37,716 bases of DNA from Cytophagales bacterium (GTDB lineage: Bacteria; Bacteroidota; Bacteroidia; Cytophagales; Cyclobacteriaceae), in the NCBI GenBank assembly GCA_024232835.1, contig JAAEPI010000426.1:1-37716 (forward strand), written 5' to 3'. Under the pieces are notes generated by a model. The model was not told the origin of the DNA and did no database searches. It was given only the letters and a program-made list of their open reading frames with translations. Below, in pieces: positions 18,503 to 25,935 of the stretch; position 1 is the stretch's first letter; every line of letters begins with the position of its first letter. Position numbers and translations under genes: made by a program.

Positions 18503-19441
18503 CTAATTTTTCTTTGGTAAAAAAACTTCAGACATCATACATCGGGCACTACCTCCGCCTAACATTTCGATTACTTTGAGGTCAGCATAAATCAATTTCC
18601 CGTGAGCTGAGAGTGATCTGATCTGTACTCTGTCTAATGAATGATAGGCCGCTGATGACATGACTATCAATCGGTTCCCATCTTTGCTCTCTACCTGAAT
18701 CATGTTGCCAGCAAACTGCTCTACTTGCTCTTCCGTTATTTCTATTATCTCCTTTCCTGTATCAGCCAGAGAGTCTTCGAGCCTTTCTTTTTCCAAATCA
18801 TCATCGATGCAATCCATGCAAACCACAGCGAATTTCTCACCTAGAGCCATCATGACATTTGTATGATAAATGGGTAATCTGGCCTCACTCACTGTTTGAT
18901 TCGCATGGAAAGTGACGGCTTTATAACCAATTTCATCGCACCACGCATTTAGTGGGTCCTCCATTGTCCTGTCAGAAAGAGCCGCATAGGCAATGTTATT
19001 TTGCCTGTCCAGTAGCAAGCTTCCTGTGCCTTCCAAATAAGCCTTTTTGTCTTCCCACTGAGCATAGCTCTTTACTTTCATTACCTTGAAATTCTTTTTC
19101 AATTTGGCCAGAATATTATCTCTTCTTTCTGCTCGTCTGTTCGGGGCGAACATTGGGTACAACCTTATCATCCCATCTTCATGAAAGGATACCCAGTTAT
19201 TCGGGAAAATGGAATCAGGTGTGGCAGGGTCTGGCGTATCATCAAATATGCTTACTTCAACGCCCTCCTCCTTCAGTTTTGATACCAACCCTTCAAATTC
19301 CATTAGCGCCTTCTCCTGTATCGTCTCCTCGGTACCACCATCCCACGCTTTTTGATAAAAATTATTCACCGCCGTTTGCTCATTCATGTGGAATGCCACC
19401 GGACGAATCATTAATATACTATTTGTTATCTGTTTACTCAT
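18503..19441 (-). CDS. ctlX: CtlX-type arginine deiminase/amidinotransferase-fold hydrolase
   Basis: SILMIRPVAFHMNEQTAVNNFYQ, PDSIFPNNWVSFHEDG, and C-terminal catalytic-Cys region GGGSARCMMSEVFLP. Confidence 0.85.
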   Translation of the reverse strand: MSKQITNSILMIRPVAFHMNEQTAVNNFYQKAWDGGTEETIQEKALMEFEGLVSKLKEEGVEVSIFDDTPDPATPDSIFPNNWVSFHEDGMIRLYPMFAPNRRAERRDNILAKLKKNFKVMKVKSYAQWEDKKAYLEGTGSLLLDRQNNIAYAALSDRTMEDPLNAWCDEIGYKAVTFHANQTVSEARLPIYHTNVMMALGEKFAVVCMDCIDDDLEKERLEDSLADTGKEIIEITEEQVEQFAGNMIQVESKDGNRLIVMSSAAYHSLDRVQIRSLSAHGKLIYADLKVIEMLGGGSARCMMSEVFLPKKN

Positions 19442-20348
19442 ATACTCTACTCAAAGGCATTGTCGAACATCTTAGCAATCCTTCCATTTTTGCTACTTCT
19501 CTAAATTTAACCTCTTCAACAACTAAACCCCAGTTTCTAAATTGATCATTTAGACGCGTGAAACTACTATCCGAGATGACAATATCAGGGCTGATTGAGA
19601 AAAAATTAGAGTTCATGTCATACATTTCCTCTTTGTCAATTTCGAAGACATTATCCCGGCCAAAAAAATCAAATAGAAAGCCCACGTCTTCTTTTTTCTT
19701 GAAACCTTCAGGGTATATCACCGCCTTGTCCCTTCCTACAGCTTGAAAACAACAATCCAGATGAAGTGCATTTTCTCTGGGGCGGTCATCTGACTTGTTA
19801 AGCTCAAATGGTTTTATTTTCCAATCTGGAAAATTTCTCCTCAGAAAATCAACACCAGCTTCATTTGTTCGCGCTACCATGTATTTTTCAAAATCAGCCG
19901 CCCGAGAATAACCTACAAATAGATGCCCTTTCCATGGGATCACATCTCCCCCTTCCATCCGCTCATGATCCTCTGGATAAAAGACATTGCCTATTTGATC
20001 GATAATATACCGGATCCCGTCTACTTCTTTCTGTCGGTTGGCTGTTATTTCTGGAACAATCAACTGATCGCCAATTACGATAGCTACGTCTCTGGAAAAG
20101 ACCTGATTATAATCCGAAATGAGGCTGGGTCTATAGACGGTAACGCCATGTTTCAGTAGCACCTTTTCTACGGTCTCTAATTCTCTTATCAAATCGGTTT
20201 CAATAGGATAGGTTCCTTCAAGAATGTGTTGCCTGGACTTTGGATCATACGTATCCTCAATTTTTGGTACTCCCCCAAAGCTTTCAGCAGTACCCAATAC
20301 AACCGCCAGTAGAGGAGCTGTTTCATCCAAAATATTTGTTGTGATCAT
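19434..20348 (-). CDS. Amidinotransferase/dimethylargininase-family protein
   Basis: EGGDVIPWKGHLFVGYS, HLDCCFQAVG, C-terminal GLLRCSTMPLSR; overlaps ctlX by 8 nt. Track start is 20366; MITTNILDE at 20348 is the preferred start. Confidence 0.8.
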   Translation of the reverse strand: MITTNILDETAPLLAVVLGTAESFGGVPKIEDTYDPKSRQHILEGTYPIETDLIRELETVEKVLLKHGVTVYRPSLISDYNQVFSRDVAIVIGDQLIVPEITANRQKEVDGIRYIIDQIGNVFYPEDHERMEGGDVIPWKGHLFVGYSRAADFEKYMVARTNEAGVDFLRRNFPDWKIKPFELNKSDDRPRENALHLDCCFQAVGRDKAVIYPEGFKKKEDVGFLFDFFGRDNVFEIDKEEMYDMNSNFFSISPDIVISDSSFTRLNDQFRNWGLVVEEVKFREVAKMEGLLRCSTMPLSRVYE

Positions 20349-20451
20349 AGTTTTGAAAATCGACACAAAGTAACATTTATAAAATGAAATTCAAATGCTT
20401 TTTAGATTTCGATTTTTTTGTGATAATTGCACTCTCTAACTGCGACTTTAA

Positions 20452-21843
20452 ATGAAAAAATATGCTGATCTGATCGACCAAACTTTTGACTTCCCCACGA
20501 GGGAGTTCAAGGTTAGAAACAATCAGTTATTTTTTCATAATGTTGATTTGAAGGAGGTGGTTGAGAAATACGGTACCCCCTTGCGGCTTTCATATCTCCC
20601 AAAGATTCAGGATAATATTCGATTTGCTCAGCAGATATTTGAGCAGGCCATTGAAAAGCTGTCGTATGAGGGAATATACAAGTATGCCTACTGCACCAAA
20701 TCTTCTCACTTTCGTTTTGTGCTGGAAGAGGCCTTGGCCTGTGGATCACAAATTGAGACATCTTCTGCATTCGATATTTCCCTGATAAAAAGCCTCCACA
20801 AAAGTGGAAGTCTCACAAAAGATCACCTCATAATTTGCAATGGTTTCAAGCGGCCTCTCTATTTATCCAATGTGGCAAACCTGATCAATGATGGATTCAG
20901 AAATTGTATGCCCATACTTGATACGCTGAATGAACTAAACTCCTATGATGGACAAATCAATCAGCCGTACAAGATTGGTATACGATTAGCCGCTGATGAA
21001 GAACCAAATTTTGGTTTTTATACATCCCGATTGGGTATCAGGTATGATGACGTATTGGATCTTTACAAAAATCGTATTGAGAACCATCCGCACGCCAAGC
21101 TGAAAATGCTCCACTATTTCATCAATACTGGAATAAAGGACACAGCCTATTATTGGAGCGAGTTGAGTCGATTTATCGAAATGTACTGCAGCCTAAAAAA
21201 GCTATGCCCTGATCTTGATTCGGTAGATATTGGTGGTGGGTTTCCTATCAAAACTTCCCTGGCATTCGATTATGATTATGAATACATGGCAGAGGAAATT
21301 GTCAGAAATATTAAAGAAATATGTGATAAGTATAATGTGCCCGTGCCGAACATCGTGACTGAATTCGGAAGCTACACGGTTGGTGAGAGCGGTGCTACCA
21401 TCTACTCCGTGCTTGATGAAAAATTGCAAAACGACAAAGAACTCTGGTACATGATGAATGGATCGTTTATCACCCATATGCCCGATGTGTGGGGAACCAA
21501 TCAGAAGTATATCCTGCTTCCGATTAACTTGTGGGACAATGAATTTCATAAGGTGAATATCGGTGGACTAACCTGCGACAGTCTGGACTACTATGATTCT
21601 GAGATGCACATTGCAGAAGTATTTCTTCCTGTCAAGAAAGAAAAGGAAGACCTATATTTTGGATTCTTTCACAATGGCGCCTATCAGGAATCGTTGGGCG
21701 GATATGGTGGCATTCAGCATTGCCTGATCCCGGCACCCAAGCACGTCATTCTCAAGAAAGATAAAAATGGGGAAATTCAATCCGAACTGTTTGCTGAAGA
21801 ACAGACCAGCGAATCAATGATGAAGATATTGGGGTATGAGTGA
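20452..21843 (+). CDS. PLP-dependent (fold III) arginine/ornithine/diaminopimelate decarboxylase-family protein
   Basis: YGTPLRLSYLPKI, YAYCTKSSHF (PLP lysine), SVDIGGGFP, TEFGSYTVGESG, GGLTCDSLDYYD. Confidence 0.82.
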   Translation: MKKYADLIDQTFDFPTREFKVRNNQLFFHNVDLKEVVEKYGTPLRLSYLPKIQDNIRFAQQIFEQAIEKLSYEGIYKYAYCTKSSHFRFVLEEALACGSQIETSSAFDISLIKSLHKSGSLTKDHLIICNGFKRPLYLSNVANLINDGFRNCMPILDTLNELNSYDGQINQPYKIGIRLAADEEPNFGFYTSRLGIRYDDVLDLYKNRIENHPHAKLKMLHYFINTGIKDTAYYWSELSRFIEMYCSLKKLCPDLDSVDIGGGFPIKTSLAFDYDYEYMAEEIVRNIKEICDKYNVPVPNIVTEFGSYTVGESGATIYSVLDEKLQNDKELWYMMNGSFITHMPDVWGTNQKYILLPINLWDNEFHKVNIGGLTCDSLDYYDSEMHIAEVFLPVKKEKEDLYFGFFHNGAYQESLGGYGGIQHCLIPAPKHVILKKDKNGEIQSELFAEEQTSESMMKILGYE

Positions 21844-21988: not shown

Positions 21989-24900
21989 ATGACATCAACA
22001 AAAGCAGAAAAAAGTGCCCTTTGTGGAATATGCCCGGCAGGCTGCTGGATCCATGTGTCCTATGACGATGATGGAAAGATCGAAGACGTTCGAGCTGATG
22101 CTTCGTCCGGTAACGGAGTGATATGCAAGATTGGAAAACACTCAAGAGATATCGTCTACTCAGATGACCGCTTGCAATATCCGATGAAGAGAAAAGGGGC
22201 AAAAGGGTCGTATGAGTTTGAGCAAATATCCTGGGATGAAGCTTATGAAATCATCGTTGAAAAACTAGAAGCTATAAAGGACAAACACGGGCCTGAAGCT
22301 ACAGCAATCTACACTGGCAGGGGGAGTTTTGAATTGGCCTTGTGTGATGTTTATCAACCAAAAGAGGTAGCAATTTCGTCAGCATCAAGTGTGCTTTTCC
22401 CTTTTGGTTCGCCAAATACCTTAGGGGTCGGAGCGCTGTGCTATGTTTCATTCGCCATGATAGCCCCGCATGTGACGATGGGTGAGATGTATTTCAATAT
22501 GTTCTCAGATATTGAAAATGCAGAAGTAATCGTTGTTTGGGGAGCCAACCCTGCAACAGACAGCCCCCCCACTGATTTCGAAAGAATAATTAAAGCCCAT
22601 GAGAGGGGAGCAAAAGTAATTGTTATCGATCCAAGACGAACAGCTTTGGCAAAGCTGGAAGGCGCAGAGTGGATTCCTATCCGGTCTGGTACCGATGGAG
22701 CATTGGCCTTAGGGCTTTGTAATGTGCTAATTGAAGAGGAGCTCTATGATGCCCAATTTGTTGAAAACGAGATGATCGGATTCGAAGAGTTTTCGCAATA
22801 TGTCCAGCACTTCACTCCCGTGGATGTTGAAGAAAAAACAGGTGTCCCTGCTGAGACAGTTGTAAGCCTTGCAAGACAAATTGTTTCCGCGGACGGGGCT
22901 GCCCCTGTTATGTACACCGGATTGGAATACACCAACAGTGGAGTTCAGAATATACGGGCAACTTTTGTGCTTTGGGCAATGGCAGGACAGCTGGATGTGC
23001 CAGGCGGGAGATGTTTTTCTATGAAAGAAAATCAGTTTCCGATAAATAAATCCGGGCTCATTCCTAACCCAGACATGAAAAAAGCACTTGGTCAGGATCG
23101 GTTCCCTGTTTATAGCGCTTATCGCGGAGAATCCCATGCTATTTCACTACCAGAGTCAGTTCTGAAAAGTAATCCATACAAAATCCGTTCATTGATTATT
23201 CATGGTGGTTCCATAACTACGTCTTGGCCGGAACCTGATATCTGGAAAGAAACCTTGAATGAGCTTGATTTCTTGGTGTGCATTGATCGATATCTCACCG
23301 CTGATGCTGCATATGCCGACATAGTACTACCAGCAACTACGATGTATGAAATTGAGTCATACATGACCTATGGTTCATTATTTAAAATTCGAGAAAAAGT
23401 GATAGAGCCGGTCGGCGAATCAAGAAACGATTTTTTCATCATGGCAGAATTGGCCGACAAGCTCGGTTACGGACATCTGTATCCTCAAAATGAAGAAGAA
23501 CTGCTGCAACACGTCTTGAAAGGTTCTGGGTTTTCATTGGATGAAGTGAGGAGAAATGGCGGGATGGTTCAAAAAAAGCCGGTCATGCTGCAGTACAAAA
23601 AATGGGAGAAAGGTCTGTTGAGAGAAGATGGAAAAAAGGGATTCGATACTCCTAGTGGAAAATTTGAAATAGCTTCCTCCATTCTTGAAGAAAACGGTTA
23701 CGACGCATTACCTGTGTACACCGAACCTACGGAAGGATTGTCTTCAGATCTTCATAACAACTATCCCCTTATTTTCAATTCAGGAGCACGAGTTACTACC
23801 GATTTCCGTTCGCAACATCATAGCATAGAATCGTTGGTGAAAGAACGAAAGGAGCCAACGGTAACTCTTAACGCTCAAGACGCAAAAGATAGAGGTATCG
23901 AAAATGGTGAGCTTGTCCAAATTGAAACTGCTCGAGGAAAGGTAGAAATGAGGGCCTATGTTACTGATGATATTATTACAGGTGCTATTGATGCCAATAT
24001 GGGAGGAGGTGGGCCGTTAGGTCCTGAAGCTTGGCAAAAGGCAAATGTTAATGCGCTGACCGATTTGCAAAACTATGATCCAATTTCTGGATTTCCAGTT
24101 TACAAATCCCTGCTATGCGAAGTGAAAAAGGTCTCTACAATTACGAATAAACTGGAGATTGATTCAGGGGAAATAAATAGGCAGATCAAATCCAATGGAC
24201 AGAAATCGGGCAAAGAAAAACGCATTTATCTCGATAACAATGCCACCACACCACTGAGTGATGAGGTGAAAAAAGTATTGGTCGAATATTTGGAGAAATT
24301 TGGCAATCCTTCTAGCATTTATTCGGAAGGAAAAGAGGCGAAAATTGCTCTAGATGCAGCCAGGAGGAACCTTGCCAATCTGATAAACTGCACAGCCAGA
24401 AGAATCATATTTACCAGTGGTGGTTCTGAAGCCAACAACAATGCTATCAAAGGAGTGGCCTTTAAAAACAGAAATACCAAAAACCATATCATCACCACGA
24501 GTATCGAGCACCCATCAGTACTAAACACGTGCAAGTGGCTTGAAGAAAATAGTTTTTCTGTCACCTATCTCCAACCAACGGAAACGGGCTTAATAGAACC
24601 TGAGGCATTGCTGGATGCCATTACACCAAAAACATGCCTGGTTAGTATCATGCTGGCCAACAATGAAGTCGGCACCATCCAGCCAATTGCACAGTTGGCA
24701 GCTATCGCAAAGCAACATGAAGTTCTTTTTCACACGGATGCAGTTCAGGCGATTGGCAAGATTCCGGTTGATGTTCAGGAGTTGAATGTGGATTTGCTTA
24801 CAATGTCCGGCCATAAATTGCACGGACCAAAAGGCTGTGGCATACTGTATGTAAAGAAAGGAGTAGTGATTGATCCTCTGATAAACGGCGGTAGTCAGGA

Positions 24901-25372
24901 AGCTAAGCAAAGGGCAGGAACGGAAAATCTAGTCAGCATTGTAGGAATGGGAGAAGCTGCACAATTAGCAGCATCAAATATTGAGTATTCTGTGCGTATT
25001 GCCGCATTGCGTGACAAACTGGAATACGAGATTCTCAACCTGTTTGATGGAGGAAAGATTAACGGGAGTACTGAGCACCGATTGCCCAACACACTCAATG
25101 TAACATTGCCAGAGGTGAGAGGAGAGTCTTTGGTACTGGCGATGGATAAGAGAGGGGTTTCATTGTCCTCAGGTTCAGCTTGTCGCTCAGGGTCACCTGA
25201 TCCTTCGCATGTACTGCTAGCTTTAGGATTAACGGAGGAGGAAGCGCATTGCTCTGTGCGTCTTTCTTTAGGAGTGGAAAACACAGAAGAGGAAATCAAA
25301 AGAACAATTGTCATCCTGAATCAAATAATGGTCGATATGAAGGACAATATACGTTTTGTGTCTTGTCGATAA
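21989..25372 (+). CDS. Fusion protein: molybdopterin oxidoreductase (N-terminal) plus NifS/IscS-type cysteine desulfurase (C-terminal)
   Basis: aa 1-~715: [4Fe-4S] motif C12-x2-C15-x3-C19-x26-C46, candidate Mo-ligand Cys151 in GSPNTLGVGALCYVS, WGANPATDSPPTDFERI, VIDPRRTALA, molydopterin-binding C-terminal domain. aa ~745-1127: RIYLDNNATTPLSDEV, SGGSEANNNAIKG, HTDAVQAIGKIPVD, SGHK (Lys943), SSGSACRSGSPDPSHVL (Cys1065). No Met in the 30-aa linker. Confidence 0.93.
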   Translation: MTSTKAEKSALCGICPAGCWIHVSYDDDGKIEDVRADASSGNGVICKIGKHSRDIVYSDDRLQYPMKRKGAKGSYEFEQISWDEAYEIIVEKLEAIKDKHGPEATAIYTGRGSFELALCDVYQPKEVAISSASSVLFPFGSPNTLGVGALCYVSFAMIAPHVTMGEMYFNMFSDIENAEVIVVWGANPATDSPPTDFERIIKAHERGAKVIVIDPRRTALAKLEGAEWIPIRSGTDGALALGLCNVLIEEELYDAQFVENEMIGFEEFSQYVQHFTPVDVEEKTGVPAETVVSLARQIVSADGAAPVMYTGLEYTNSGVQNIRATFVLWAMAGQLDVPGGRCFSMKENQFPINKSGLIPNPDMKKALGQDRFPVYSAYRGESHAISLPESVLKSNPYKIRSLIIHGGSITTSWPEPDIWKETLNELDFLVCIDRYLTADAAYADIVLPATTMYEIESYMTYGSLFKIREKVIEPVGESRNDFFIMAELADKLGYGHLYPQNEEELLQHVLKGSGFSLDEVRRNGGMVQKKPVMLQYKKWEKGLLREDGKKGFDTPSGKFEIASSILEENGYDALPVYTEPTEGLSSDLHNNYPLIFNSGARVTTDFRSQHHSIESLVKERKEPTVTLNAQDAKDRGIENGELVQIETARGKVEMRAYVTDDIITGAIDANMGGGGPLGPEAWQKANVNALTDLQNYDPISGFPVYKSLLCEVKKVSTITNKLEIDSGEINRQIKSNGQKSGKEKRIYLDNNATTPLSDEVKKVLVEYLEKFGNPSSIYSEGKEAKIALDAARRNLANLINCTARRIIFTSGGSEANNNAIKGVAFKNRNTKNHIITTSIEHPSVLNTCKWLEENSFSVTYLQPTETGLIEPEALLDAITPKTCLVSIMLANNEVGTIQPIAQLAAIAKQHEVLFHTDAVQAIGKIPVDVQELNVDLLTMSGHKLHGPKGCGILYVKKGVVIDPLINGGSQEAKQRAGTENLVSIVGMGEAAQLAASNIEYSVRIAALRDKLEYEILNLFDGGKINGSTEHRLPNTLNVTLPEVRGESLVLAMDKRGVSLSSGSACRSGSPDPSHVLLALGLTEEEAHCSVRLSLGVENTEEEIKRTIVILNQIMVDMKDNIRFVSCR

Positions 25373-25413: not shown

Positions 25414-25935
25414 CTAAAAAAAACAATCCATAATCTCCCTAACACTCTTCACTCCATAATCTCCAATTGTCTCCTCCCCTTCCTGGTAATAGCCTTCAAG
25501 AAAAATGCGAATCGTTTTCATACCGAATTTCTTCGCTGGAATCAAGTCCCGCTCCTTATCCCCAATCATCCAGCTTTGTAGGGGATCAATATTGAATTTG
25601 GCCATAGCCTTCTCCCACATAAGTGAATCAGGCTTGCGAGTCAAACTCTCTGAGAAATCAGGATGATTGGGCGCATAATAAAAGTGATCGATCAAGTCAC
25701 CAGATTCTTTTTGGAAGTAATCATGACATTCTTGCATCTGCTCTTGCGTGTATCTGCCTTTAGCGATTCCGGCCTGATTAGTCACAACTATTAGTAAATA
25801 GCTTTGTGATTTCAACTTCTTGAGGACGTCTATAATGCCCGGTACTATCTTGAAATCCTCCAGGAGCCACACGTAATCACCTCTTTCTTCGTTCAATACA
25901 CCATCTCGATCTAAAAAAACCGCCTTTTGTTTCAT
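25414..25935 (-). CDS. gmhB: D-glycero-alpha-D-manno-heptose-1,7-bisphosphate 7-phosphatase-like HAD hydrolase
   Basis: VFLDRDGVLNEERGDYVW, VVTNQAGIAKGRY, FYYAPNHP, KPDSLMWEKAMAKFNIDPLQSWMIGDKERDL. Confidence 0.88.
   Translation of the reverse strand: MKQKAVFLDRDGVLNEERGDYVWLLEDFKIVPGIIDVLKKLKSQSYLLIVVTNQAGIAKGRYTQEQMQECHDYFQKESGDLIDHFYYAPNHPDFSESLTRKPDSLMWEKAMAKFNIDPLQSWMIGDKERDLIPAKKFGMKTIRIFLEGYYQEGEETIGDYGVKSVREIMDCFF

What the first reader, a model, noticed from the sequence alone, without database searches (positions are those of the whole stretch)
21989..25372. Single-chain fusion of a molybdopterin oxidoreductase with a cysteine desulfurase
Seen directly: one 1127-aa ORF with a complete DMSO-reductase-family half (C12-x2-C15-x3-C19-x26-C46 Fe-S motif, Cys151 in the GSPN...ALCY context of Cys-ligand enzymes such as PsrA/PhsA/FdhF, C-terminal molydopterin domain) joined through a ~30-aa polar linker to a complete NifS/IscS half (Lys943, Cys1065 intact). 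The linker has no Met, so separate translation of the desulfurase from a nearby ATG is not possible. Established knowledge: E. coli FDH needs IscS-derived sulfur passed through FdhD to form the Mo-sulfido ligand, and R. capsulatus uses a NifS-like protein for xanthine dehydrogenase. Inference: the fusion either sulfurates its own Mo centre in cis, or couples L-cysteine desulfuration to Mo-dependent reduction of the persulfide (polysulfide/thiosulfate-reductase-like chemistry). No TAT signal is visible, and no FdhD, MobA, Fe-S electron-transfer or membrane subunit is encoded in the window, so it looks like a stand-alone cytoplasmic enzyme. I am not aware of this architecture being characterised.
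Basis: partly seen in the sequence, partly recalled or inferred. Interest (0 to 1): 0.92.

Follow-up and report, generated by a model that had tools for sequence, protein, structure and literature searches.

The report
Known anaerobic-type ergothioneine synthase (MES)
This large two-part protein is real, but it is a relative of an enzyme described in 2022 that takes sulfur from cysteine and puts it on trimethylhistidine to make the thiol ergothioneine; here it seems to have been picked up by gene transfer in a bacterium that also has genes for breathing oxygen.

Summary
The fusion is real. Window 21989-25372 encodes one 1127-aa chain with a bis-MGD molybdopterin module (about residues 1-714) and a NifS/IscS-type cysteine desulfurase (about 744-1120). 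It is not a one-off: 19 other full-length homologues (58-69% identical) and several partial ones lie in anammox planctomycetes, Nitrospirota, Zixibacteria, Calditrichota, Methanomicrobiales and others. In 21 loci a neighbouring same-strand gene is egtD (histidine N-alpha-methyltransferase), which identifies the pathway. The enzyme is metallopterin-dependent ergothioneine synthase, MES (Beliaeva & Seebeck 2022, PMC9516567). A Caldithrix abyssi homologue fetched here reproduces the published length and residue numbers, and every published catalytic or relay residue is conserved in the window: four Fe-S cysteines, metal ligand C151, PLP lysine K943, relay C1065/C1126, and C1088. The genome has an above-cutoff EgtD on another contig, MoeA, and no above-cutoff EgtB. 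The gene occurs in 1 of 59 related genomes and sits between two genes that are adjacent in relatives, so it was probably acquired horizontally. Side finding: ANME-1 archaea carry the Mo module next to egtD without the desulfurase.

The parts
21989..25372 (+). MES (metallopterin-dependent ergothioneine synthase), single 1127-aa chain
   Evidence: ORF and Pfam domains; 67% identical over full length to the 1136-aa Caldithrix abyssi homologue whose residue numbers equal the published CaMES
21989..24130 (+). N-terminal bis-MGD molybdopterin module (residues 1-714); nearest solved structure by sequence is acetylene hydratase 2e7z
   Evidence: in ANME-1 archaea the same stretch is a stand-alone protein
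22022..22126 (+). 4Fe-4S cysteines C12, C15, C19, C46
   Evidence: aligned with CaMES C14, C17, C21, C48; conserved in every sequence that covers them
22439..22441 (+). C151, metal-ligand cysteine
   Evidence: aligned with CaMES C153; C153S abolishes activity (PMC9516567)
24131..24217 (+). polar linker, residues 715-743, no Met
   Evidence: variable in the alignment
24218..25369 (+). C-terminal NifS/IscS-type cysteine desulfurase module (residues 744-1127)
24815..24817 (+). K943, PLP-binding lysine
   Evidence: aligned with CaMES K952
25181..25183 (+). C1065, desulfurase persulfide cysteine
   Evidence: aligned with CaMES C1074
25250..25252 (+). C1088, conserved non-essential cysteine
   Evidence: aligned with CaMES C1097
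25364..25366 (+). C1126, C-terminal relay cysteine, second to last residue
   Evidence: aligned with CaMES C1135; invariant in 20 full-length sequences
20452..21843 (+). upstream flank: SpeA-like decarboxylase, native to the host order
   Evidence: present in 34 of 39 related genomes
25414..25935 (-). downstream flank: GmhB-like phosphatase; adjacent to the SpeA-like gene in relatives that lack MES
   Evidence: empty site in L082 and L083

Best explanation
The ORF is a metallopterin-dependent ergothioneine synthase (MES). The C-terminal PLP desulfurase takes sulfur from L-cysteine (K943) onto C1065. The persulfide is relayed via C1126 at the C-terminus to the Mo/W bis-MGD centre of the same chain (C151 ligand). 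The metal sulfido group is then attacked by the imidazole of N-alpha-trimethylhistidine, giving ergothioneine and a reduced metal that is recharged by the next persulfide. Trimethylhistidine is supplied by the EgtD encoded on another contig of the same genome. Shown here: the architecture, conservation of all published essential residues, family-wide egtD linkage, and EgtD plus MoeA in the genome. Shown in the paper for C. abyssi and homologues: ergothioneine production, need for each residue, cis transfer. Inferred: that this particular protein does the same, and the Mo=S chemistry, which the authors call tentative.
For: Full-length homology to the C. abyssi protein, 66.8% identity over residues 7-1127, whose length (1136) and C14/17/21/48/153/1074/1097/1135 and K952 match the published numbering exactly. 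All these residues are conserved in the window and invariant in 20 full-length rows. egtD nearby and on the same strand in 21 loci from several phyla, with three tested examples over the TIGR03438 cut-off. Own genome: one EgtD over cut-off, 292.5 vs 290.9 bits, matching solved EgtD structures; MoeA; no EgtB over cut-off. Best sequence match of the Mo module to a solved structure is acetylene hydratase, as in the paper.
Against: egtD is not adjacent in this genome and passes its cut-off only narrowly; the genome is a 1521-contig assembly with 3.95% estimated contamination. The genome carries haem-copper oxidases, whereas the paper reports homologues only from anaerobes. Only one Mo-cofactor gene was looked for. 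No assay exists for this protein.
Confidence: 0.93

Rival explanations
1. The fusion is a polysulfide/thiosulfate-reductase-like or formate-dehydrogenase-like enzyme whose desulfurase only matures its own Mo centre or feeds it persulfide.
For: The Mo module scores on FDH (303 bits) and PhsA (286 bits) models; the metal-ligand Cys fits such enzymes.
Against: Both scores are far below the curated cut-offs of 666 and 694. Closest solved sequence is acetylene hydratase. The egtD linkage and the published product of close homologues point to ergothioneine. No electron-transfer or membrane partner was seen among the window ORFs scanned.
Confidence: 0.03
2. A MES-derived enzyme that has moved to another heterocyclic substrate in this host, not trimethylhistidine.
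For: egtD is unlinked here and only 41% identical at best to the MES-linked EgtDs examined; the host is rare in carrying MES.
Against: All catalytic and relay residues and most of the Mo module are conserved at about 70% identity, as among homologues that sit beside egtD; EgtD is present in the genome.
Confidence: 0.03
3. Assembly or binning artefact: chimeric ORF, or a contig from another organism.
For: Fragmented assembly; absent from 58 of 59 related genomes.
Against: Colinear full-length homologues in many genomes. The flanking genes are native to the order and are adjacent without MES in relatives, so one contig joins native flanks to the insert.
Confidence: 0.01

Closest known systems
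CaMES, metallopterin-dependent ergothioneine synthase of Caldithrix abyssi (Beliaeva & Seebeck 2022, PMC9516567)
   Same: Same two-module architecture, same length class, all essential residues, 66.8% identity to the C. abyssi homologue fetched here.
   Different: Gene not next to egtD; host genome has haem-copper oxidases and is probably a Bacteroidota-type bacterium (by gene content only, not tested).
Acetylene hydratase of Syntrophotalea acetylenica (2e7z)
   Same: Closest solved structure for the Mo module by sequence; 4Fe-4S and Cys metal ligand (paper).
   Different: No desulfurase; different reaction (hydration).
EanB (rhodanese-like) and EgtB (iron, O2-dependent) ergothioneine synthases
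   Same: Same step of the pathway, sulfur onto trimethylhistidine (paper).
   Different: Unrelated proteins. EgtB matches in this genome are all below the cut-off. EanB was not searched for.
IscS/NifS with FdhD (FDH maturation), Aba3 moco sulfurase
   Same: Cysteine-derived persulfide sulfur moved to a Mo centre.
   Different: One-time maturation there; in MES the sulfur is consumed each turnover and supplied in cis (paper).

Membership tests
MES | Mo/W bis-MGD module fused N-terminally to a cysteine desulfurase in one chain | tested here: met
MES | 4Fe-4S cysteines (CaMES C14, C17, C21, C48) | tested here: met
   C12, C15, C19, C46
MES | Cys metal ligand (C153) | tested here: met
   C151
MES | PLP lysine K952 and relay cysteines C1074 and C1135, each essential in CaMES | tested here: met
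   K943, C1065, C1126
MES | EgtD-type histidine methyltransferase in the genome | tested here: met
   one hit, 292.5 bits against a cut-off of 290.9, on another contig; matches solved EgtD structures
MES | No EgtB in the genome | tested here: met
   four matches, none over the cut-off
MES | No EanB in the genome | not tested
   no specific model was used
MES | Molybdenum cofactor genes in the genome | tested here: met
   MoeA_N over cut-off; other Moco genes not searched
MES | Strictly anaerobic host (as reported in the paper) | tested here: not met
   three COX1-family matches over the cut-off. This is a correlate of the hosts known so far, not a defining property of the enzyme.
MES | Ergothioneine produced from trimethylhistidine and cysteine | not testable with these tools
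   needs expression
Formate dehydrogenase alpha (TIGR01591) / thiosulfate reductase PhsA | Score over curated cut-off | tested here: not met
   303.4 vs 666.25; 285.6 vs 694

The most novel reading that the evidence does not exclude
MES is modular. In ANME-1 archaea the Mo module alone, encoded with egtD, makes ergothioneine with a different sulfur donor (sulfide, polysulfide or a SufS-type protein). In the window's host the fused form works in a cell able to respire oxygen. Together these would break two generalisations of the 2022 paper: that the desulfurase is always needed in cis, and that only anaerobes have the enzyme.
Probability: 0.35. Interest if true: 0.45.

Novelty: new member of a known kind. 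Interest (0 to 1): 0.2.

Why it matters
It places a rare C-S-bond-forming molybdenum enzyme in a lineage where it is otherwise almost absent, by insertion of a single gene, and shows its wide horizontal spread (anammox planctomycetes, Nitrospirota, methanogens). The finding as given is not a new enzyme type. The ANME-1 desulfurase-less form is the part that raises a testable question.

Tried and rejected
AlphaFold model of the fusion from 20 sequences: mean pLDDT 57.8, poor over the Mo module, so nothing was concluded about the relay path. A 1685-aa homologue (L023) looked like a triple fusion, but the extra part lies beyond a run of unread bases that joins it to a downstream gene. Paper searches that combined the architecture with anammox, or ergothioneine with Methanophagales or anammox, found nothing in the held library. 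Rooting the MES tree on L041/L042 failed because of very long branches, so gain or loss of the desulfurase is not settled.

Full report
Observation. The ORF at 21989-25372 is a single 1127-aa frame. Pfam places the molybdopterin oxidoreductase domain at 61-490, the molydopterin dinucleotide-binding domain at 601-707 and a class-V aminotransferase (cysteine desulfurase) at 746-1105.

Recurrence. One scan of named genomes gave 37 loci. Most carry the same fusion, including full-length proteins in Scalindua, Brocadiaceae, Jettenia, Loosdrechtia, Nitrospira and other Nitrospirota, Zixibacteria, Calditrichota, a spirochaete, Myxococcales and Methanomicrobiales. Twenty full-length proteins including the window's align end to end; the others are 58-69% identical to it. 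The fusion is therefore an established protein family, not an accident.

Identity. Clustering neighbour genes showed one gene family beside the fusion in 21 loci, always on the same strand and mostly within about 150 bases. It is EgtD, histidine N-alpha-methyltransferase: the three members tested exceed the TIGR03438 cut-off. That pointed to ergothioneine, and the literature search found the enzyme already described: metallopterin-dependent ergothioneine synthase, MES, of Caldithrix abyssi (PMC9516567), also covered in a 2023 review (PMC10903977). The paper reports four homologues producing ergothioneine in E. coli, loss of activity on mutating C153, K952, C1074 or C1135, and obligatory sulfur transfer within one chain.

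Residue test. The protein of the C. abyssi MAG in L015 is 1136 aa long and has cysteines at 14, 17, 21, 48, 153, 1074, 1097 and 1135 and lysine at 952, which are the published numbers. The window's equivalents are C12, C15, C19, C46, C151, C1065, C1088, C1126 and K943. All are invariant across the 20 full-length sequences, as are C119, C710, C801 and C848.

Genome context. The window's genome has one EgtD above the cut-off on another contig, similar to solved EgtD structures. From my own memory of the EgtD literature, the histidine-contacting Tyr, Asn, Tyr, Glu and Ser also look conserved in that alignment; this list was not checked against a paper. MoeA is present. EgtB-like matches are all below the cut-off. 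Three haem-copper oxidase matches exceed the cut-off, so the host probably can use oxygen, unlike the anaerobes in the paper.

Origin. MES occurs in 1 of 59 related genomes and 1 of 398 sampled from the phylum, in both cases the window's own. The upstream SpeA-like gene is in 34 of 39 related genomes. In L082 and L083 the SpeA-like gene and the GmhB-like gene that flank MES here are next to each other without it. MES has 43.9% GC against 40.0% for the window. A single-gene horizontal acquisition into a native contig fits best; the donor is unresolved in the tree.

Side findings. In three ANME-1 genomes (L030, L031, and G496 read as L067/L090) the Mo module is a separate 728-729-aa protein, about 70% identical to the window's, with egtD overlapping or directly following and no fused desulfurase. 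The two of these genomes that were searched for desulfurases hold only one match each, about 31% identical. In the tree they group with fused methanogen MES (100/99), but the root is unsure. Because the C. abyssi enzyme needs its desulfurase in cis, the donor in ANME-1 is open. In six other loci (anammox and Zixibacteria) egtD-MES lies beside a betaine-type ABC importer, an ATPase plus a permease fused to its binding protein. The binding part matches osmoprotectant ProX best and the ergothioneine-binding EgtUC less well, and a permease-binding protein fusion specific for ergothioneine is known (PMC9732360), so uptake of ergothioneine or trimethylhistidine is possible but its substrate is unproven.

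Verdict. Interest 0.2.

Noticed in passing
L030:7099-10297, L031:3123-6324, L090:4409-7602: ANME-1 (Methanophagales) MES Mo module without desulfurase, in an apparent operon with egtD and followed by a flavodoxin/FMN-reductase-like gene; sulfur donor unknown.
   Followed up: partly
L041:6813-8978, L042:7977-10202: Stand-alone Mo proteins about 52-53% identical to the MES module in genomes without an EgtD match; very long branches, possibly a different function.
   Followed up: partly
L068 / L047, L069 / L091: Further ANME-1 copies of the module that are broken by stops or frameshifts or run off the contig.
   Followed up: no
L013, L043, L046: Short contigs labelled Fermentibacteria, Patescibacteria and Chitinophagaceae; the L013 copy nests inside Scalindua, so it may be a binning contaminant. 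The other two were not placed.
   Followed up: partly
L012:4563-6858 and L017, L020, L022, L023, L025: A betaine-type ABC importer (ATPase plus permease fused to its binding protein) lies beside egtD-MES in six loci; binding part matches ProX best and ergothioneine-binding EgtUC less well. Perhaps uptake of ergothioneine or trimethylhistidine.
   Followed up: partly
window 18503-20366 (-): Citrulline-utilisation hydrolase CtlX next to an arginine-deiminase-like gene, beside the SpeA-like decarboxylase; conserved cluster in relatives.
   Followed up: no
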